NCBI GenBank assembly: GCA_947494205.1 | Contig: CANLUH010000016.1 | Span: 1 to 64,000 of the forward strand | Direction of reading: 5' to 3' | Source of the DNA: an uncultured Flavobacteriaceae bacterium | GTDB taxonomy: Bacteria; Bacteroidota; Bacteroidia; Flavobacteriales; Flavobacteriaceae | Length of the DNA stretch: 64,000 nucleotides | Shown: positions 4,010-12,878 of the stretch, in pieces | How the letters are laid out: every line of letters begins with the position of its first letter | Numbering within the stretch: the first letter of the stretch is position 1 | Program-made: the position numbers and the translations under genes | Notes under the pieces: generated by a model | What the model was told of the DNA's origin: nothing | Databases searched by the model: none | What the model saw: the letters and a program-made list of their open reading frames with translations, nothing else

Positions 4010-6112
4010 ATGAAAGTAACAAACCCTCATTTTTACAAAAAATCAGCAACTACTTCCCTACTCGTTTGCTCGCTTTTTTTAGCCTCTTTATTAAGTATAA
4101 AGAGTAATGCACAACAAGCTAACGACGACCGCGTTATGCTACAAGGATTCTACTGGGAGTCTGCAGCCAATAATCCAGACAATTGGTACAATATTGTTTC
4201 TAATTTAAGTCAGGAAATATCAGATATTGGTATAGACCTAATTTGGCTACCACCGCCAAGTGATGCTGGTTCTTTAGAAGGTTATTTACCAAGAGAATTC
4301 AACAATTTCAGTAATAGTTATGGTAGTTTAACAGACCACCAAAACATGTTAAACAATCTTAATAGCAAAGGCATTGAACCTATTGCAGACATTGTTATTA
4401 ACCATAGAGTTGGTTCTACAAATTATGTAGATTTCACCAACCCCACTTGGCCTACAGATGCTATTACTTCTAATGATGAAGTTTGGAGTGTACCCGAATA
4501 TTTTAACACTTTCCCCCGTGGGAATAATGATACAGGTACATCGTACGAAGCTGCACGAGATATTGATCATACCAAAACGTATGTACAGAATAGTATTATT
4601 CAGTTTTTAAATAACCTTAAAGCATTAGGTTATAAAGGCTGGCGTTATGATTTTGTTCATGGCTTCGACACCTATTATTTCACTTTGTATAATAATGCGA
4701 CAAACCCAACGTATTCGGTAGGTGAAAACTACACTTCTAATAAACAGGTAATACAGGATTGGATTGACAACACAGGATCAGCCGCTTTCGACTTCCCTAC
4801 TTATTTTACTTTAAAGTCTGTAGTAAGAGATAATAACTATTCGTACTTAAACAATAACGGTAGTGCGTCTGGTGGTATTGGTTGGGATCCTAAAAACAAT
4901 ACAACTTTTGTAGAAAACCATGACACACCACGATACGATTTACCTAATAATGTTTTAAATGCTGGTAATGTTGCACAAACCTATGCCTATTTATTAACGC
5001 ATCCTGGTGTACCCTGTATTTACTGGCCACATTTATTTGATTGGGGAAACACTGTAAAAACAGAAATTACAGATCTTGTTGGCATTAGAAAAGCTGCGGG
5101 TATACACAGCCAAAGTAACCTAACGATAGAAACGGCTCAAAATGGTGTTTACGCAGCTATTATTAACGGTGACAATTATGATGTTGCTATGAAAATGGGA
5201 CCTAACGACTGGAGTCCTCAAGGTAATGGTTGGACTTTAGCTGCTTCTGGAAACAACTATGCCGTTTGGACCAAAACAACGGTTACACCTAACCCGGATA
5301 CGTTTACTGTTTTTGTACAAAATTATAGTACTATTTACAGCTGGGACGCTAATTTGAATGCCACTAATGGCGGCTGGCCAGGAAATACTTTAACCGATTT
5401 AGGTAATGGTTGGTTCTCTGCAACAGTTTCGGGTACGTGTTCTAATATCATTTTTAGTAATAATGGTGCGAACCAAACTGCAGACCTTTATACATGCAAC
5501 AATACGCCTTACTATTACCAAGGGAATTGGTATGCAAATGACCCTACTGGAAATAATAACACAAATTCATTTACAGTATACGTACAAGGTTATTCTCATG
5601 TGTATACTTGGGATGATAATTTAAATGCAACTAACGGTAATTGGCCTGGTGCTACATTAGAAAGTGCTGGTAATGGTTATGTCTCTAAAACTGTAACAGG
5701 AAATTGCTCTAACGTTATTTTTAGTAATAACGGCAGTAACCAAACAGCTGACCTTTATACTTGTAGCGACAAACCTTATTTTTATAATAACACATGGCAT
5801 AGTAATCCTGCGAGTTCTAGATTACAAAATACTGCTTTAGAAGCTATAATGGCTAAATCTATACGTATAGCACCAAATCCTATTAGTAATACTACAGAAA
5901 TAACACTAGAAATAACTACTGAAGAAACACCTGTATCTATTACGTTAACAGGGCTTCGTGGTACTAGACATTCTGTTTTTAATGGTGTATTAAAAAAGGG
6001 AATACACCATATTAAATTAAACACTGACAACTATAGTCTACAACCTGCGTTGTATTTATGTCAAATAAACATCAATGGTAACATTACGAATAAGAAGCTT
6101 ATGAAGTTGTAA
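4010..6112 (+). CDS. Secreted GH13 alpha-amylase with two starch-binding modules and T9SS tail
   Basis: A 700-residue secreted enzyme cleaving internal alpha-1,4 bonds of starch. A signal peptide covers about residues 1-34 (ends SNAQQ). The catalytic barrel at about 40-425 shows all four GH13 regions: DIVINH (127-132), the nucleophile in WRYDF (D214), the acid/base in VGEN (E239) and ENHD (D305). Two homologous modules at about 431-508 and 519-598, both with a TWD/SWD-xNLNATNG-xWPG core, resemble CBM26-type starch-binding domains and look like a tandem duplication. Residues about 612-700 form a type A T9SS sorting domain ending in a basic tail. No Sus transporter genes flank it, so it appears to be a stand-alone extracellular amylase. 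Confidence 0.95.
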   Translation: MKVTNPHFYKKSATTSLLVCSLFLASLLSIKSNAQQANDDRVMLQGFYWESAANNPDNWYNIVSNLSQEISDIGIDLIWLPPPSDAGSLEGYLPREFNNFSNSYGSLTDHQNMLNNLNSKGIEPIADIVINHRVGSTNYVDFTNPTWPTDAITSNDEVWSVPEYFNTFPRGNNDTGTSYEAARDIDHTKTYVQNSIIQFLNNLKALGYKGWRYDFVHGFDTYYFTLYNNATNPTYSVGENYTSNKQVIQDWIDNTGSAAFDFPTYFTLKSVVRDNNYSYLNNNGSASGGIGWDPKNNTTFVENHDTPRYDLPNNVLNAGNVAQTYAYLLTHPGVPCIYWPHLFDWGNTVKTEITDLVGIRKAAGIHSQSNLTIETAQNGVYAAIINGDNYDVAMKMGPNDWSPQGNGWTLAASGNNYAVWTKTTVTPNPDTFTVFVQNYSTIYSWDANLNATNGGWPGNTLTDLGNGWFSATVSGTCSNIIFSNNGANQTADLYTCNNTPYYYQGNWYANDPTGNNNTNSFTVYVQGYSHVYTWDDNLNATNGNWPGATLESAGNGYVSKTVTGNCSNVIFSNNGSNQTADLYTCSDKPYFYNNTWHSNPASSRLQNTALEAIMAKSIRIAPNPISNTTEITLEITTEETPVSITLTGLRGTRHSVFNGVLKKGIHHIKLNTDNYSLQPALYLCQININGNITNKKLMKL

Positions 6113-6130
6113 ACAATCTAGTTTACTTAT

Positions 6131-6270
6131 AAAAGGGTGATCTGAAAAGTCATTATAATTCACTTTGTCAAGTTTTGAGGGTGTCGAAACTGATATTGAT
6201 TATCAATAAGATAAAATATTTCGACAAGCTCAATATGACATAGAACTATACTTTTCAGACCACCTCTTTT
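6131..6270. mobile_element. MITE-like inverted-repeat element, copy A
   Basis: A 140-base non-coding element with imperfect terminal inverted repeats of about 20 bases: AAAAGGGTGATCTGAAAAGT (6131-6150) and the complement of 6250-6270. It has an internal self-complementary core (GTGTCGAAA ... TTTCGACA). It is clearly homologous, in opposite orientation, to 11418-11549. No transposase is encoded. It sits in the 3' region between the amylase and the cyclophilin gene. Confidence 0.75.
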
Positions 6271-6331
6271 ATTTTGTATTATTATCAAATGACTTAACAT
6301 TTTTACAGGAAAATAAATACAGTGCTTTTTT

Positions 6332-6339
6332 TATCTTTG
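6332..6339 (+). promoter_or_regulatory. Probable -7 box (TATCTTTG) of the cyclophilin gene
   Basis: TATCTTTG matches the Bacteroidota TAnnTTTG -7 element and lies 20 bases before the ATG at 6359. A clear -33 TTTG partner is not obvious. Confidence 0.6.
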
Positions 6340-6358
6340 CGCATACAAAATCTATTTT

Positions 6359-7072
6359 ATGCGCGTATTCCTAACGTTATGTTTAACATTACTTTTTATG
6401 AGTTGTAATGACACCAAACCAACTCCTAAAAAAAAGACTGTTGTTAAAACCGAAGTCAAACAAAAAAAAGAAACGCCTAAAGTTATTGCAATTGATAGTT
6501 CTAAATTAACATTAGAAGAACGCTTTTTACCTTTAAATGATGATAACGCAATGGATTTCTTTTTGGAATACGAAAAGGAACATAAAGAGAATAAAGTGCG
6601 TATTTATACTAGCTTTGGTAACATCGAATTACTTTTATTTGATAAAATTAAATTTCACCGTGCTAATTTTATTTTTCTAGTAAAGAATAAAGTCTTCGAT
6701 GGCACACAGTTTCATCGTGTGGTTAAAGATTTTGTAATACAAGGCGGAAGCTCGGACAGTAAAAAAATAGTTAGAAAAAGACGAAAAATCGGTAGTTATT
6801 TGCTACCTCCAGATGCCAAAAGAGGATTTAAACACCATCGTGGCGTTATTTCTATACCAAGTAGTGAAATTGAAAATGCTTATAAATTAGCCTCGCCTTT
6901 CGAGTTTTTTATAACAGTAACCAACCAATACCATTTAGATAATGAATATACCGTTTTTGGTAAAGTTACTAAAGGCATGGACGTTGTAGATATCATTTCG
7001 CAACAAGAAACCGATGCTGGCGATTGGCCAAAACATAATGTTTATATTACTAAGGTTGAAGTTATAGAGTAA
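6359..7072 (+). CDS. Peptidyl-prolyl cis-trans isomerase, cyclophilin type (lipoprotein)
   Basis: A 237-residue lipoprotein: the signal ends in LLFMSC with the lipid-anchored Cys at 16, followed by a Lys/Thr-rich linker. The cyclophilin fold fills about residues 78-237, with the substrate-site block FHRVVKDFVIQGG (near residue 120) and the late FGKVTKGMDVVD block. It should catalyse proline isomerisation during folding of periplasmic proteins, attached to a membrane. It is transcribed alone from its own promoter. Confidence 0.92.
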   Translation: MRVFLTLCLTLLFMSCNDTKPTPKKKTVVKTEVKQKKETPKVIAIDSSKLTLEERFLPLNDDNAMDFFLEYEKEHKENKVRIYTSFGNIELLLFDKIKFHRANFIFLVKNKVFDGTQFHRVVKDFVIQGGSSDSKKIVRKRRKIGSYLLPPDAKRGFKHHRGVISIPSSEIENAYKLASPFEFFITVTNQYHLDNEYTVFGKVTKGMDVVDIISQQETDAGDWPKHNVYITKVEVIE

Positions 7073-7095
7073 TCGTCTTTTAGTATCTTTAGATA

Positions 7096-7173
7096 ATGAA
7101 ACCTTTTTTAAAACTCTTCTTTATTATCTTTTTGTTAGATATTTTAATTGGATTTATTTTAGCACTTATCTAG
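7096..7173 (+). CDS. Possible 25-residue hydrophobic micro-protein
   Basis: An ATG-to-TAG ORF of 25 codons just downstream of the cyclophilin gene, encoding MKPFLKLFFIIFLLDILIGF and five more residues: one basic N-terminus and one transmembrane-length helix with a central Asp. The composition is that of real small membrane proteins, but the ORF is too short for coding statistics. Confidence 0.3.
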   Translation: MKPFLKLFFIIFLLDILIGFILALI

Positions 7174-7458
7174 CAAGAAACTTCCAGCATTAATTATATT
7201 TTCTCCTTTTAAAACCTCATTATTTCTATTCCATTAAGTTTTATTAGTAAAGATTACCCTTATTATGCTAATGGGTAAAACCTATTTATAATAATGTTAG
7301 TTTTAATTAATACATTTTTGCAATCCCTTTTCATTTATTTAATTTGGAAATTCTTAAGAAAACACAAAGCCTAATAACACTCCAAAAATTTATGATTTCA
7401 TTATCAAGTCTAAAGACTCAAATTCATTATCTTACTGCATCCAAAAATAAGACTAATT
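7174..7458. other. Intergenic region before the M3 peptidase
   Basis: No conventional gene. A second tiny hydrophobic ORF (7294-7374, 26 codons, MLVLINTFLQ...KFLRKHKA) is present and may be chance. I see no terminator hairpin or repeat here. Confidence 0.4.
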
Positions 7459-9618
7459 ATGAAACCAAAACAGTTGCTAAGCACAACACTTCTATGTGCT
7501 GTTATTGCTTTTACAGGTTGTAACGAAGACAAAAAAACGGAGACTGAATCTGATATTTCGAAAATGAGCGACAACATATTACTACAACAATGGAGCGGCC
7601 CTTACGGTGGCGTTCCTGCTTTCGATAAAATGAAAGTTGAAGACATTAAAGAAGCCATGGAAACGGGTATGGCTTTAAGTTTAAAAGACATTGATGCTAT
7701 TGCAAATAATACAGAAGCGCCTACGTTTGAAAACACCATTGCAGAAATGGAACGCTCTGGTAAAGTATTAAACGATGTGTTTAGTTACTATGGTATTTTA
7801 GGGAGTAATATGAGTACTCCAGAATTTAGAACAATTGAAAGTGAATTAGCGCCTAAATTATCGGAATACCGTTCTAAAATAGACCAAAACCCTAAACTAT
7901 TTAAACGTATAAAAGCGGTTTACGATGCCTCTAAAACAACTCCTTTAGATCCCGATCAACAACGCGTCGTAGATTTAATTTACAAACGTTTTGAAATGAA
8001 TGGCGCGGAGCTTAGCGACGACAAAAAAGCACGTTATGCAGCTATAAACAAAGAACTATCTTCATTATACAGTACCTTTTCTAATAATACATTACATGAT
8101 GAAGAAAACTACATTACGTATTTAACCAAGGATCAATTAGATGGTTTATCGGAAGGCTTTGTAAAATCGGCAGCTAAAATTGCTAAAGATAATGGGCAAG
8201 ATGGTAAATACGCTATTACAAATACCCGTTCGTCTATGGATCCGTTTTTAACCTACTCTACACATCGCGAACTACGTAAACAAGTTTGGACAAACTATTA
8301 TTCTCGTGGTGATAATAATGATGAGTACGATAATAAAAAACTGATTGCTAACATTTTAAAACTACGTAGAGAACGTGTAGCATTATTAGGCTATAAAAAT
8401 TATGCAGAATGGCGTTTACAAGATAGAATGGCAAAAACACCAGAAAATGCGATGCACTTAATGGAAGCCGTTTGGCCAGCTGCTATTGGTAGAGTTACCG
8501 AAGAAGTTGCAGACATGCAAGCTATAGCTAATAAGAACGGAGATAATATTACCATAGCACCTTGGGACTACCGTTTTTACGCCGAAAAAGTACGTAAAGC
8601 AAAATACGATTTAAACAGTGACGAAGTAAAACAATACTTACAATTAGATAAATTAACACAGGCCTTGTTTTATACTGCTGGACGTTTATTTAATTATAAC
8701 TTTAAACCCGCTCCAGAAGGCAGTGTTCCTGTATTTCATGAAGATGTAAAGGTTTGGGAAGTTACCGATAAAGATTCGGGTGAACATGTAGGTTTATGGT
8801 ACTTAGACCCTTTTGCTAGAACAGGAAAACGTTCTGGTGCTTGGGCGAATACATATAGAAGTCACACCACTTTTGATGGTAAAAAAACCGTATTAGCCTC
8901 TAACAATTCAAACTTTGTAAAACCCGCACCAGGCGAAGCCGTTTTAGTCTCTTGGGATGACGCTGAAACGTTTTTCCATGAGTTTGGCCATGCACTACAT
9001 TTTTTCTCTTCTAATGTAAAATACCCTACATTAAATGGAGGTGTTAGAGATTATACCGAGTTTCAATCGCAATTGCTAGAACGTTGGTTATCTACAGACG
9101 AAGTTATTAATCAGTTTTTAGTACACTATAAAACGGGGGAAGCTATTCCGCAGGCTTTAGTTGCAAAAATTAAAAAGGCCTCCACGTTTAATCAAGGCTT
9201 CGGAACTACAGAATATTTAGCTTCGGCTTTAATGGATATGAAACTGCATTTAGCAGATCCGGAAAATATTGATATTGCCGCTTTTGAACGTGAAACTTTG
9301 GCCGAATTAAAGATGCCTAAAGAATTACCGATGCGCCATAGAACACCTCATTTTGGACATGTATTCTCTGGTGAAGGTTATGCAACTGCATACTACGGTT
9401 ATATGTGGGCAGATGTTTTAACAAGTGATGCTTCGGAAGCTTTTAAAGAAGCACCAGATGGGTTTTACGACACAGCAGTAGCCGATAAATTAGTGAAGTA
9501 TTTATTTGCGCCAAGAAACTCTATGGATCCAGCTGAAGCTTACCGAAAGTTTAGAGGTCGTGATGCTAAAATTGAAGCATTAATGCGAGATCGTGGTTTT
9601 CCTGTTCCTACAGAATAA
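7459..9618 (+). CDS. dcp: M3 family metallopeptidase (peptidyl-dipeptidase Dcp-like lipoprotein)
   Basis: A 719-residue zinc peptidase of the thimet oligopeptidase/Dcp family, which trims dipeptides from the C-termini of short peptides. The zinc motif HEFGH is at 507-511, followed by the third-ligand block DYTEFQSQLLERW. The C-terminal substrate pocket GEGYATAYYGYMWADV is present. The N-terminus has a lipobox (AFTGC, Cys21), so the enzyme is probably a membrane-anchored periplasmic or surface protein. Full family length with all blocks intact. It is a single-gene unit ended by the strong hairpin at 9722-9760. The symbol is by family only. Confidence 0.93.
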   Translation: MKPKQLLSTTLLCAVIAFTGCNEDKKTETESDISKMSDNILLQQWSGPYGGVPAFDKMKVEDIKEAMETGMALSLKDIDAIANNTEAPTFENTIAEMERSGKVLNDVFSYYGILGSNMSTPEFRTIESELAPKLSEYRSKIDQNPKLFKRIKAVYDASKTTPLDPDQQRVVDLIYKRFEMNGAELSDDKKARYAAINKELSSLYSTFSNNTLHDEENYITYLTKDQLDGLSEGFVKSAAKIAKDNGQDGKYAITNTRSSMDPFLTYSTHRELRKQVWTNYYSRGDNNDEYDNKKLIANILKLRRERVALLGYKNYAEWRLQDRMAKTPENAMHLMEAVWPAAIGRVTEEVADMQAIANKNGDNITIAPWDYRFYAEKVRKAKYDLNSDEVKQYLQLDKLTQALFYTAGRLFNYNFKPAPEGSVPVFHEDVKVWEVTDKDSGEHVGLWYLDPFARTGKRSGAWANTYRSHTTFDGKKTVLASNNSNFVKPAPGEAVLVSWDDAETFFHEFGHALHFFSSNVKYPTLNGGVRDYTEFQSQLLERWLSTDEVINQFLVHYKTGEAIPQALVAKIKKASTFNQGFGTTEYLASALMDMKLHLADPENIDIAAFERETLAELKMPKELPMRHRTPHFGHVFSGEGYATAYYGYMWADVLTSDASEAFKEAPDGFYDTAVADKLVKYLFAPRNSMDPAEAYRKFRGRDAKIEALMRDRGFPVPTE

Positions 9619-9721
9619 TTCTATCGCTATGAATTTGTGGTAATTTGTGCGATTGTGTCAAAAACATTTGGGCACATATAATTCAAACTATGCCTCAGGT
9701 TAATAAAATATTCTTATAAAT

Positions 9722-9760
9722 AAAAAGCGTTTTCTAAAACAGCTTTAGAAAACGCTTTTT
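9722..9760. terminator. Bidirectional intrinsic terminator
   Basis: A perfect 17-base-pair stem (9722-9738 with 9744-9760) and 5-base loop, with A-runs on one side and T-runs on the other. It lies between the convergent M3 peptidase and the minus-strand gene ending at 9769 and can end both transcripts. Confidence 0.9.
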
Positions 9761-9768
9761 TATTAAGA

Positions 9769-10884
9769 TTAATCATCAAAATAGTTAATCTTTAGTGTTG
9801 TAGATTTATCTAAATATTTTCCTTCAGCATCTATAATATACGATTTAATGTCAACAGGATTTTTTAAAGCGTCATAACTATACTCGTATTCTAAATCCTG
9901 ATGTAATAGTGTTTCATAATCATACTCCTTATAATAATCTGTTACCATTTTTATGGTAAATCCATTATTGGTATAATCTACTATATAGGATTCTGATTCC
10001 TTATTATTTTTCTCTAACTGATGCTTTATTATTCTGCCTTTTACATCGTACGCATAGCTACCTTTTACTTCTTCAAAAAAGATATCTATTAATCCATCCG
10101 TTTCAAATTTCCATGTTTCAGGTTTTGAATAGACGTCTATCGTTTCGGCATAATAACGATTATATACTAATGTGTAATTTTCTAATTGCCCTTCGTTATT
10201 ATAGGTATAACGGTTCTCTTGTACTTCTACGATATCAGGATTTGGTGCATAATGACTATAAGTTGCCATTAACCCTAACTTAGTATAGGTTATTTTAGTG
10301 TAAGATGCCACTTCAAACTCTGAAAACAACATATAGCTTTCATCAACATCACCTTCATCATCGACTTCAAATGCTCCCATTGAGGTATAATGTATTTTCT
10401 CTGTAAGCTTTCCTTTTTTGTATTTAAAAGTAACACTATCCATAACGCCATCATCAAAATTCTGCGTTTCTTTAACCATTAACAGTCCCTTTTTATAGGT
10501 GTACTTAGTAGTATTGCTAGATATTACGGTATCTATTTTTTCTATTTTAAATGTTGTATTAACAGCAAAATTCTCCACTGTCATATCATCGTACTCTAAA
10601 TCGCTTCTATAATCTGTAACGGTATGATTTTTATCTAAAGTATAACTGTAATGGTCTGTATATTCTTTTTCAGAATATGGCGATTTATGCTGAGTAAACG
10701 TTCTCATCACAGTATTTACATTTCCATTTAAATGTAATGGGTTTGTTACTTTTTCAGCATCGTAAAGTGCATTAAACTGATCTTGAGGTAATGTTATATA
10801 ATCTTCTAACACCCCTTCGTTTTGACTGTATAAACACTGAATAGTAGTTATAAATACGAGTAACAAATAGGTTTTTAATTTCAT
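9769..10884 (-). CDS. Secreted hypothetical protein with YD/RHS-like repeats
   Basis: I place the start at 10884 (371 residues) because MKLKTYLLLVFITTIQCLYS is a clean signal peptide; the frame stays open for 37 more codons upstream, but that segment is charged and unlikely. The mature part consists of irregular beta-rich repeats rich in Tyr and Asp of the form YTYNNEGQLENY or YAYDVKGRIIKH, reminiscent of RHS/YD-type repeats. No catalytic motif is visible and there is no T9SS tail. Such proteins are probably periplasmic or outer-membrane surface proteins of unknown role. Transcribed alone. Confidence 0.75.
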   Translation of the reverse strand: MKLKTYLLLVFITTIQCLYSQNEGVLEDYITLPQDQFNALYDAEKVTNPLHLNGNVNTVMRTFTQHKSPYSEKEYTDHYSYTLDKNHTVTDYRSDLEYDDMTVENFAVNTTFKIEKIDTVISSNTTKYTYKKGLLMVKETQNFDDGVMDSVTFKYKKGKLTEKIHYTSMGAFEVDDEGDVDESYMLFSEFEVASYTKITYTKLGLMATYSHYAPNPDIVEVQENRYTYNNEGQLENYTLVYNRYYAETIDVYSKPETWKFETDGLIDIFFEEVKGSYAYDVKGRIIKHQLEKNNKESESYIVDYTNNGFTIKMVTDYYKEYDYETLLHQDLEYEYSYDALKNPVDIKSYIIDAEGKYLDKSTTLKINYFDD

Positions 10885-11134
10885 ATAAATGGTTAAGTCT
10901 GGGTTAATACTTAGTGCTAAGTTAAACGATTTAGAACTAAACTTATTACTTCTTTGCCATCTTTCATTATAGTATATAATATAAACATGTAACACATTTG
11001 GCTTATTTATAAATCTGGTATTCCTTATTTAGAAATAGGAAACCGTATTACTTGCTGTGAACTCTTTTTTTAGATTCCTTTGACAAAAATCAGCTGATAT
11101 ACAATACTTTACATTTTAATTTAAAATAACAACA

Positions 11135-11338
11135 ATGAAAAAATTAAAAATTACAAGCCTAATTTGCGCTATGACTTTAGGTTTAATGAGTTTTGCTTCA
11201 ACCGAAGAAGCCCTTATTGGATGCCGAAACATTCAGGATCGTGATCAATGTATAGAATGTTGTGATTTTGCCTATTCAACTTGCGTAAGATCATCAACAA
11301 ATTCTGAACAGTATTGTAGTGATATTAGATTTTTCTGA
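11135..11338 (+). CDS. Small secreted six-cysteine peptide
   Basis: A 67-residue precursor. The first 22 or so residues form a typical signal peptide (MKKLKITSLICAMTLGLMSF, then AST). The mature part of about 45 residues has six Cys in the pattern GC-x8-C-x2-CC-x6-C-x10-C, suggesting up to three disulfides. I do not recognise the family. It is free-standing with its own upstream region and is followed by a MITE-like element. It could be a secreted peptide of the small Cys-rich kind found in Flavobacteriia; no export protease or immunity gene lies beside it. Confidence 0.65.
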   Translation: MKKLKITSLICAMTLGLMSFASTEEALIGCRNIQDRDQCIECCDFAYSTCVRSSTNSEQYCSDIRFF

Positions 11339-11417
11339 AAATTAAGCTGTCCTAATTAAGTAATAGTATTTTTTCTTAATAGCTATAAAGAAGAATCGCT
11401 TACTTTATGGCTTCTTT

Positions 11418-11549
11418 AAAGGGGTTTGAAAAGTGTAATTCTATGTTATATTTGGCTTGTTAATATTGTATTACATTAAAAATTTATATCAGTTTCAATA
11501 AGCTTAACTTAACAAAATGAATGATAATCACTTTTCAAACAACCTTTTT
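11418..11549. mobile_element. MITE-like inverted-repeat element, copy B
   Basis: A 132-base relative of the element at 6131-6270, read in the opposite orientation. The terminal repeats are AAAGGGGTTTGAAAAGTG (from 11418) and its near complement ending at 11549. Shared blocks with copy A include TTCTATGTnATATT, GCTTGT, ATATCAGTTTC and the run CTTnACAAAnTGAATnATAATnACTTTTCA. It lies between the six-Cys peptide and the TRIC gene. Confidence 0.75.
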
Positions 11550-11559
11550 ATATAATATA

Positions 11560-12162
11560 TTACGCTTTATATAAACTTGGTAAACTAATTTTAAATTTAA
11601 CAGCTATTAATCTTGTTATAATAACTACAATACCCGCCAATACAAAAACAATGTCGCTTTCTATGGGTAATTTTCTTATTAAGAAATAAGAAAAACCACC
11701 TAAAATACAAGCCGTTGCATAGACTTCTTTTCTAAAAATTACAGGGATTTCATTACATAAAATATCTCTAATAACACCACCAAAACAAGCAGACATGGTA
11801 CCGAGAGCAATACAAATTATGGGGTGTAAATCGGCAGAAAGTCCTTTTTCTACACCAACAACAGTATATAAACCAATACCAATAGTATCGAATAAAAATA
11901 ACGAAGTACGTAAATAATCGATTTTACTTTTAAAAATAATAGCAAAAACGGTTGCCGCAGAAATAACATAGACAAAGGTCATATCTTTCATCCACCCTAC
12001 TGGTGTCTGCCCAATAAGCACATCTCTTAAAGTACCACCTCCTACAGAGGTTACAAAAGCAATAATAAGAATTCCAAAAGGATCCATTTTCTTATCTAAT
12101 GCTACTAAAACACCAGAAATAGCAAATGCTACAGTTCCTAAAATATCTATTATATAAAACAT
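11560..12162 (-). CDS. Trimeric intracellular cation (TRIC) channel family protein
   Basis: A 200-residue protein with about seven transmembrane helices and two copies of the UPF0126/TRIC signature: SVGGGTLRDVLIG (about 39-51) and ACFGGVIRDIL in the second half. Prokaryotic TRIC homologues form trimeric K+-permeable channels; similar proteins have also been linked to glycine transport, so the substrate is open. Its start codon touches the stop of the RDD gene upstream (one-base overlap at 12162), so the two are translationally coupled. Confidence 0.9.
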   Translation of the reverse strand: MFYIIDILGTVAFAISGVLVALDKKMDPFGILIIAFVTSVGGGTLRDVLIGQTPVGWMKDMTFVYVISAATVFAIIFKSKIDYLRTSLFLFDTIGIGLYTVVGVEKGLSADLHPIICIALGTMSACFGGVIRDILCNEIPVIFRKEVYATACILGGFSYFLIRKLPIESDIVFVLAGIVVIITRLIAVKFKISLPSLYKA

Positions 12163-12878
12163 TACATGTTTTGTGTATAGTAATTATAATCTTTTAAAAC
12201 GGTATCTATAAACTGTGTATCTGTACCACTTTGGTTTTTAATCTCTGTAACCTCTATAATTTTTGACCTTAATTTTATTAAGGTTGTATAATCTTTAGAT
12301 GCTCTAACATTATTAAACGTTTCTTTAATAATTCGAGCATCGTTATCAGACAGTTTTATAACACTAGGATATGTTGGTTTGTAATCTGCTTTTAAATCCT
12401 CTAAAATGGTATGACTAATATCTACTTTATCTCTTAAAGAAATCACTGCTGTTCCTGCTGCCATATCACCAAAACGTTGCCCTTTCTTACTAAAAGCAAT
12501 GCTAAAAAAACCTAGTCCGAAAATGTAAATATCTACAATTCTAAAAAACCAACGCACTAAATAATCGGATATTGACGCTTGATAGCCATCAATTTTAACA
12601 ACTCTTATTTTCAATACTTTCTTACCAAGTGTTTGTCCTTCTAATAATGCTTCTTGCACCAAGGTATAAAATACTACAGGTAGACTTATAAGTGTATTCA
12701 AACCTATTTCAGACCATTCATCCATACCATCAAAGGCATCAAAAATGCTGCCCATAACCGTTAAGTATGCCACTTTTATAATTGTATCTAATATAAATGC
12801 TAATAATCGTTCGCCTACTCCCGAGGCTTCGAACTTTATTTTTACATTTTGTGTGGTGTTAATTTGTAACTCTGACAT
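12162..12878 (-). CDS. RDD family membrane protein
   Basis: I choose the start at 12878 (MSELQINTTQ). A longer frame begins at 12929, but it would overlap the divergent gene at 12903 and adds a non-conserved N-terminus. The 238-residue protein carries an RDD domain at about 20-155: GVGERLLAFILDTIIK, two or three helices, and the GQTLGKKVLKIRVV loop. The soluble C-terminal 90 residues are unassigned. In Bacteroidota a RDD gene regularly stands next to SpoIIM, DUF4129, MoxR and DUF58 genes, as here, where it diverges from that operon with only 24 bases between the start codons. Confidence 0.88.
   Translation of the reverse strand: MSELQINTTQNVKIKFEASGVGERLLAFILDTIIKVAYLTVMGSIFDAFDGMDEWSEIGLNTLISLPVVFYTLVQEALLEGQTLGKKVLKIRVVKIDGYQASISDYLVRWFFRIVDIYIFGLGFFSIAFSKKGQRFGDMAAGTAVISLRDKVDISHTILEDLKADYKPTYPSVIKLSDNDARIIKETFNNVRASKDYTTLIKLRSKIIEVTEIKNQSGTDTQFIDTVLKDYNYYTQNM

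What the first reader, a model, noticed from the sequence alone, without database searches (positions are those of the whole stretch)
6131..11549. Two diverged copies of one MITE-like inverted-repeat element, in opposite orientation
6131-6270 and 11418-11549 both have terminal inverted repeats around CTGAAAAGT/TTGAAAAGTG and share long blocks (TTCTATGTnATATT, ATATCAGTTTC, ACAAAnTGAATnATAATnACTTTTCA). Both lie just after a gene end. Size of about 135 bases, palindromic ends and no coding capacity fit a non-autonomous transposable or REP-type family. I recall similar sequences scattered in marine Flavobacteriia, but I know of no formal description.
Basis: partly seen in the sequence, partly recalled or inferred. 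Interest (0 to 1): 0.6.

Follow-up and report, generated by a model that had tools for sequence, protein, structure and literature searches.

The report
Palindromic repeats that replace transcription terminators
The two repeats belong to a widespread family of about 131-base palindromes in Bacteroidota bacteria that sit just after genes, look like two-way stop signals for transcription, and appear to have taken the exact place of the ordinary stop-signal hairpins found at the same sites in related species.

Summary
The copies (6134-6266 and 11418-11546) are 76% identical in inverted orientation and belong to a dispersed family: about 40 places in this genome and about 35 in a second one (G261, an uncultured Algibacter). 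A scan with exact 17-base ends found 58 more stretches across Bacteroidota, none in viral, plasmid or phage records. The anatomy is modular: ends (GAGGCTGTCTAAAAAGT/ACTTTTTAGACAGCCTC between an A-tract and a T-tract), length (mode 131) and a central TTGATAATCAA-like motif persist, while at least four kinds of inner arm alternate. Copies sit 3' of genes (exact-end set: 37 convergent, 17 tandem, 0 divergent; median 25 nt from stop codons) and their stems covary. They have the form of bidirectional intrinsic terminators. No target-site duplication is enriched in 104 copies. No DDE_Tnp_1 or Y1 transposase with matching ends was found; other transposase families were not searched. Orthologous sites in congeners carry short, unique terminators at the same distance from the stop codons (13 sites, median difference 2 nt, permutation p=5e-5), so the element seems to replace the hairpin in situ. 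Closest known: pneumococcal SPRITE. Termination is untested and the exchange mechanism inferred. MITE membership: target-site duplication tested, not met.

The parts
6134..6266 (.). Copy 1 of the palindromic repeat (133 bases between and including the outer arms)
   Evidence: 91% identical to the family consensus; sits 21 nt after the stop codon at 6110-6112
6131..6134 (+). A-tract in front of the outer stem (T-tract of the reverse-strand terminator; 6134 is also the first base of the outer arm)
   Evidence: sequence
6134..6150 (+). Outer left arm, AGGGTGATCTGAAAAGT (consensus GAGGCTGTCTAAAAAGT)
6167..6189 (+). Inner left arm, GTCAAGTTTTGAGGGTGTCGAAA
   Evidence: inner helix covaries in the family
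6196..6206 (.). Conserved centre TTGATTATCAA
6219..6239 (+). Inner right arm, TTTCGACAAGCTCAATATGAC
6250..6266 (+). Outer right arm, ACTTTTCAGACCACCTC
6267..6270 (+). T-tract after the outer stem
   Evidence: sequence
11418..11546 (.). Copy 2 (129 bases), diverged
   Evidence: 79% identical to the family consensus
11418..11434 (+). Outer left arm, AAAGGGGTTTGAAAAGT
   Evidence: changes TTTGAAAAGTG/CACTTTTCAAA are matched on both arms
11445..11467 (+). Inner left arm, GTTATATTTGGCTTGTTAATATT
11491..11513 (+). Inner right arm, AGTTTCAATAAGCTTAACTTAAC
11530..11546 (+). Outer right arm, ACTTTTCAAACAACCTT, whose last bases run into a T-tract to 11549
4010..6112 (+). Gene (700 aa, resembles a secreted alpha-amylase by inspection) whose 3' end copy 1 follows
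   Evidence: name from inspection, no family search run
11560..12162 (-). Gene (200 aa membrane protein) whose 3' end copy 2 follows on the other strand, 13 nt away
   Evidence: orthologous genes in G001 and G002

Best explanation
The two sequences are members of a modular family of about 131-base palindromic repeats that act as bidirectional intrinsic (Rho-independent) transcription terminators and spread by taking the place of the terminator hairpins already present after genes. Shown here by sequence: the dispersed family, its shape (A-tract, 17-bp outer stem, inner arms, T-tract), its place 3' of genes, covariation of its stems, absence of target-site duplications, and orthologous sites where congeners hold a short unrelated terminator at the same distance from the stop codons. 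Inferred: that it terminates transcription, and how the exchange happens. The most likely route is copying or recombination between hairpins through the A- and T-tracts that all intrinsic terminators share, either directly (template switching) or as insertion beside the resident terminator followed by slippage deletion of it between two A-tracts. Selection for a strong two-way terminator may fix it.
For: Family: 54 blastn matches in G000, one weak (coding) match in congener G001 and none in G002; 30 of 299 Flavobacteriaceae genomes with hits at E<=1e-7. Discrete unit: 30 of 58 exact-end stretches are exactly 131 bases, 48 within 129-132, with 122-152 allowed. Position: exact-end set 37 convergent, 17 tandem, 0 divergent against baseline intergenic bases of 8% convergent and 39% divergent; 104 flanks A-rich before and T-rich after. 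G000: 17 convergent, 23 tandem, 1 divergent. G261: 22, 9, 1, median 24 nt to stop codons. Covariation: 11 pairs and 20 cells changed on both sides, 0 of 500 shuffles. Replacement: (13 sites, gaps match, permutation p=5e-5, Spearman 0.90 left and 0.93 right); in G000 two similar tandem units at C5:99.2-99.4 kb differ in that one holds CCACC..GTGG and the other the element, between matching flanks; at L008 and L011 congeners have a different hairpin. Control: 8 of 18 ordinary terminators keep a recognisable stem (score >=0.6) between G261 and G036, none of 5 element sites in that sample do.
Against: Termination was not measured. At L248 and L229 (G261) the element is an addition without loss of a terminator, so plain insertion also happens. 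At L251, L243 and L232 the gaps do not match well. More than half of the 18 ordinary control terminators also diverge beyond my threshold, so some replacement could be ordinary turnover. The 13 sites were those with a readable syntenic neighbour in the part of G036 that was fetched; two further loci (L239, L249) were unclear. Up to 91% identity between genera with patchy distribution suggests transfer or a mobilising enzyme that was not found; only PF01609 (4 genomes) and PF01797 (9 genomes) were searched.
Confidence: 0.72

Rival explanations
1. Classical MITE: a non-autonomous transposon moved in trans by an IS with the same ends, which tolerates only 3' intergenic sites, and whose ends happen to make a terminator. 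Old terminators decay afterwards because they are redundant.
For: 17-bp terminal inverted repeats, constant length, many copies, lineage-specific amplification, patchy spread across genera. L248 and L007 hold both an element and a native terminator.
Against: No target-site duplication at any of 9 offsets and lengths 2-10 in 104 copies; no IS-length pair of these ends among the listed hits (the list was cut for several genomes); no PF01609 transposase in G000, G261 or single-contig G249; matching gaps mean the old hairpin is gone with few or no extra or missing bases.
Confidence: 0.17
2. REP/BIME-type element moved by a Y1 (RAYT/TnpA) transposase: the inner arms are REP-like hairpins in inverted pairs.
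For: Inner arms match dispersed GTCA-type repeats that also occur outside the element; absence of target-site duplications; Y1 genes in G249, G164, G008 and G177.
Against: G210, G223 and G036 have no Y1 match, G000 only a decayed IS200-type tnpA with unrelated hairpins, and G261 only a Y1-like domain fused to HemF; no element directly flanks the Y1 genes examined.
Confidence: 0.06
3. Not mobile: independent terminators converging on similar sequence, or inherited terminators homogenised by gene conversion.
For: Nearly all copies are at terminator positions; terminators are strongly constrained in shape.
Against: About 140 bases shared at up to 91% identity between genera, exact 131-bp length, absence in congeners at the same loci.
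Confidence: 0.05

Closest known systems
[quoted passage not shown] Croucher et al. 2011, PMC3049150)
   Same: Dispersed short AT-rich repeat with AAAA/TTTT ends, terminator-like fold, enriched near 3' ends of genes; its authors could establish no target-site duplication or comparable empty site.
   Different: SPRITE has one 18-bp duplex and a long U-rich tract, in pneumococcus and S. mitis. Here the unit is a 131-base modular palindrome with exchangeable inner arms in Bacteroidota, and orthologous sites indicate that it replaced other terminators.
MITEs (for example BOX, RUP, Correia elements; review PMC10969869)
   Same: Small, non-coding, terminal inverted repeats, many copies, patchy.
   Different: No target-site duplication, no partner transposase found, almost only at 3' ends, loss of the resident hairpin.
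REP/BIME with RAYT (PMC2817692)
   Same: Palindromic intergenic repeats, inner arms as inverted pairs.
   Different: 131-base unit with long outer stem; no consistent Y1 partner.
Inverted DNA uptake sequences forming terminators (mentioned in PMC3049150 and PMC2267715)
   Same: Repeats that double as terminators.
   Different: About 30-60 copies with fixed 131-base length, against about a thousand or more 10-12-base copies with short spacing (the latter from general knowledge).
Ype and Efa stem-loop repeats (PMC1590033)
   Same: Repeat families near 3' ends of genes.
   Different: Different hosts; sequence not compared; no terminator replacement reported in the passages read.

Membership tests
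MITE | Terminal inverted repeats and short non-coding body | tested here: met
MITE | Target-site duplication | tested here: not met
   104 copies, 9 offsets, lengths 2-10: observed about equal to expected; also G261 alone
MITE | Parent IS or transposase with matching ends | tested here: inconclusive
   no IS-sized end pairs in the listed hits, no PF01609 in three carriers; other transposase families not searched
MITE | Empty sites in relatives | tested here: met
   element absent at orthologous sites, though mostly with another terminator in its place
REP/BIME | Associated RAYT (Y1) gene flanked by the repeat | tested here: not met
Intrinsic terminator | Stable stem followed by a T-tract just after the stop codon | tested here: met
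Intrinsic terminator | Stops RNA polymerase | not testable with these tools
   needs Term-seq or a reporter assay
SPRITE | Sequence of the pneumococcal SPRITE model | not tested
   no SPRITE sequence was compared; similarity is of form and position only
Known RNA family (Rfam) | Match to a covariance model | tested here: not met
   no match up to E 5 in 5500-12200

The most novel reading that the evidence does not exclude
A transposase-free 'selfish terminator': a long palindrome that spreads within and between Bacteroidota genomes by converting resident intrinsic terminators, using only the A- and T-tracts common to all of them as homology, and that exchanges its own inner hairpins by the same route while keeping ends, centre and length.
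Probability: 0.3. Interest if true: 0.85.

Novelty: new variant of a known kind. Interest (0 to 1): 0.62.

Why it matters
Terminator-like repeats such as SPRITE were suspected to be co-opted transposable elements, but no comparable empty sites had been found (PMC3049150). Here orthologous sites show that the repeat stands where a different terminator stands in the congener, at the same distance from the stop codons. That makes a question directly testable: can intrinsic terminators be swapped as units, and by what enzyme or replication error? If exchange runs through A/T-tracts, it would be a way for regulatory hairpins to spread that I did not find described. It also gives an annotation rule for 3' ends in Bacteroidota.

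Tried and rejected
Rfam search: nothing. PF01609 transposases: none in G000, G261, G249; 14 matches in G008, whose flanks were not examined because three carriers lack the family. PF01797: no fitting partner. Target-site duplications: not enriched. Viral contigs, plasmids, phages: no match. Single matches GAGGCTGTAGAAAAAGT in C29 and C40 have no facing end and read like coding sequence. The only weak match in congener G001 looks coding. DNA uptake sequences rejected on fixed 131-base length and low copy number. Literature: no paper with the end sequence in an evident relevant context among the 20 listed of 186; searches for terminator repeats in Bacteroidetes or Flavobacterium were empty or off-target.

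Full report
Check of the observation. The two sequences exist and match each other at 76% identity over 134 bases in inverted orientation. Their outer arms are 6134-6150/6250-6266 and 11418-11434/11530-11546. Both are long imperfect palindromes; copy 1 folds at -46 and -54 kcal/mol on its two strands (shuffles about -22), copy 2 at -33 and -25 (shuffles about -17). The short motif alone is not enriched in the window, so the evidence is the length of the match and the family behind it.

The family in this genome. blastn with each copy finds many further copies; a consensus query gives 54 matches in G000 (both orientations of the palindrome counted), but only one weak match in congener G001, apparently coding, and none in congener G002. 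The end pattern GAGGCTGTCTAAAAAGT gives 61 matches with up to 3 mismatches against 21 for the reversed control, mostly as facing pairs 45-155 bases apart; no pair at IS distance was seen. Reading these places shows other interiors between the same ends, and short hairpins with the same ends (L078, L076, L070, L072) that look like plain terminators or internal-deletion derivatives.

The family elsewhere. Among 299 Flavobacteriaceae genomes 30, this one included, have a match at E<=1e-7, up to 91% identical across genera. A scan of one genome per species with exact 17-base ends and a spacer of 88-118 finds 58 stretches in Bacteroidota (Flavivirga, Kordia, Aquimarina, Winogradskyella, Tamlana, Maribacter, Mesonia, Gramella, Galbibacter, Dysgonomonas, Prolixibacteraceae, Marinilabiliaceae and others; one MAG each is labelled Chlorobiota and Sulfurovum). 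Thirty are exactly 131 bases and 48 lie within 129-132. Their inner arms are of at least four kinds (GTCA..TGAGCTTGTCGAA, GTCATTCTGAACTTGTTTCAGAATCTCAT, GTCATTACGAACGAAGTGAAGTAATCT, CTTTGTGTTCTTTGTGGT), while ends, length and often a central TTGATAATCAA-like motif persist. The exact-end pattern was not found in viral contigs, and the consensus had no match in plasmids or phages.

Position. In G000 41 places are 17 convergent, 23 tandem and 1 divergent; in a 384-kb sample divergent gaps make up 21% and convergent 12% of intergenic bases (p=7e-4 for depletion of divergent, 2e-6 for excess of convergent). In G261 the counts are 22, 9 and 1, with a median of 24 nt to the stop codon. In the exact-end set they are 37, 17 and 0 against a baseline of 8% convergent and 39% divergent, median 25 nt to the stop codon; bases before the left end are mostly A and after the right end mostly T. 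These sets contain several copies per genome, so the p-values overstate independence. Genes were called by a simple ORF rule, not curated.

Structure under constraint. In 42 aligned copies of one interior type, 95% of cells of the named stems are standard pairs; 11 pairs and 20 cells show changes on both sides (shuffles 3.9 and 4.8; 0 of 500 reach the observed values; slid controls 3-9 pairs with 31-51% paired). Copying of one arm from the other could also give such paired changes, so this supports the hairpin but does not by itself prove RNA function.

Orthologous sites. For G000, congeners lack the element at the loci compared; at L008 and L011 they hold another terminator hairpin. At C5:99.2-99.4 kb G000 has two similar tandem units; between the flanks TTTAATAAAAAA and TTAGT..TCATGAAGTTT one holds the native hairpin CCACC..GTGG, which is also in G001, and the other holds the element. 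For G261 against its congener G036, the element is missing in G036 at the syntenic sites that could be read; in most of them G036 has a short terminator unique to that site. In 13 sites the gaps from the flanking genes to the stem agree (mean difference 3.3, median 2 nt, permutation p=5e-5; Spearman 0.90 and 0.93), and at L226, L241 and L242 the flanking sequence aligns best within 0-3 bases of the stem edge. These 13 are the sites with a readable syntenic pair in the part of G036 that I fetched. L229 and L248 are additions without loss, L239 and L249 were unclear. As a control, 8 of 18 ordinary syntenic terminators keep a recognisable stem between the two species (0 for random pairings), while 0 of 5 element sites in that sample do. 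The direction is from ordinary terminator to element, because the congener stems are unlike each other and unlike the element.

Mobility. No target-site duplication is enriched in 104 copies. PF01609 transposases were not found in G000, G261 and the single-contig G249. Y1 genes are not consistently present and do not carry matching ends. An unknown enzyme remains possible, since only these two transposase families were searched.

Mechanism. Shown: the form and place of a bidirectional terminator, and exchange of hairpins with A- and T-tracts kept. Inferred: termination itself, and the route. Two routes fit: direct template switching or recombination through the A- and T-tracts, or insertion beside the resident terminator followed by slippage deletion between two A-tracts. 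The latter would pass through states like L248.

Comparison with the known. The nearest relative in kind is SPRITE of pneumococcus, for which neither target-site duplications nor comparable empty sites could be found. The present family differs in size, modularity and hosts (sequence was not compared), and adds the orthologous-site evidence. It has the form of a terminator and spreads like a repeat. As a MITE it fails the target-site test; as a REP system it lacks a partner gene.

Unexplained: why length stays at 131 while interiors differ, how copies about 90% identical come to sit in different genera, and why congeners lack them.

Noticed in passing
L363:1477-2964 (G249) and L356:1483-2958 (G261): A Y1 (RAYT-like) transposase domain fused in front of what reads as HemF (coproporphyrinogen oxidase) in one open frame, in two genera; perhaps a domesticated transposase.
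   Followed up: no
G261 contig ends C4:1, C5:294059, C23:1 (L262, L260, L264): Sequence with ends GGCACTTTCAGAAGT (probably an insertion sequence) interrupts three elements, two of them near the palindrome centre, which may be a target site.
   Followed up: partly
L081:1486-1890 (G000 C26:3165-3524): The only Y1 transposase found in the window's genome is an IS200/IS605-type tnpA with an in-frame TGA, flanked by hairpins CCACCGTC..GACGGTGG.
   Followed up: partly
G000 C5:125789-126006, C3:68912 and L068 left flank: Inner-arm type repeats (CTGAGCTTGTCGAAG, GTCATTCCCATGAAGATGGGAATCT) were also hit at places not recognised as elements; probably dispersed repeats of their own.
   Followed up: partly
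L069, L070, L072, L076 (near 93962 of C9), L078 in G000: Short terminators of about 45 bases or less with the same outer arm sequence, possibly internal-deletion derivatives of the element.
   Followed up: partly
L318 and L331: Exact-end elements in contigs labelled Sulfurovum and Chlorobiota MAGs; either transfer beyond Bacteroidota or binning errors.
   Followed up: no
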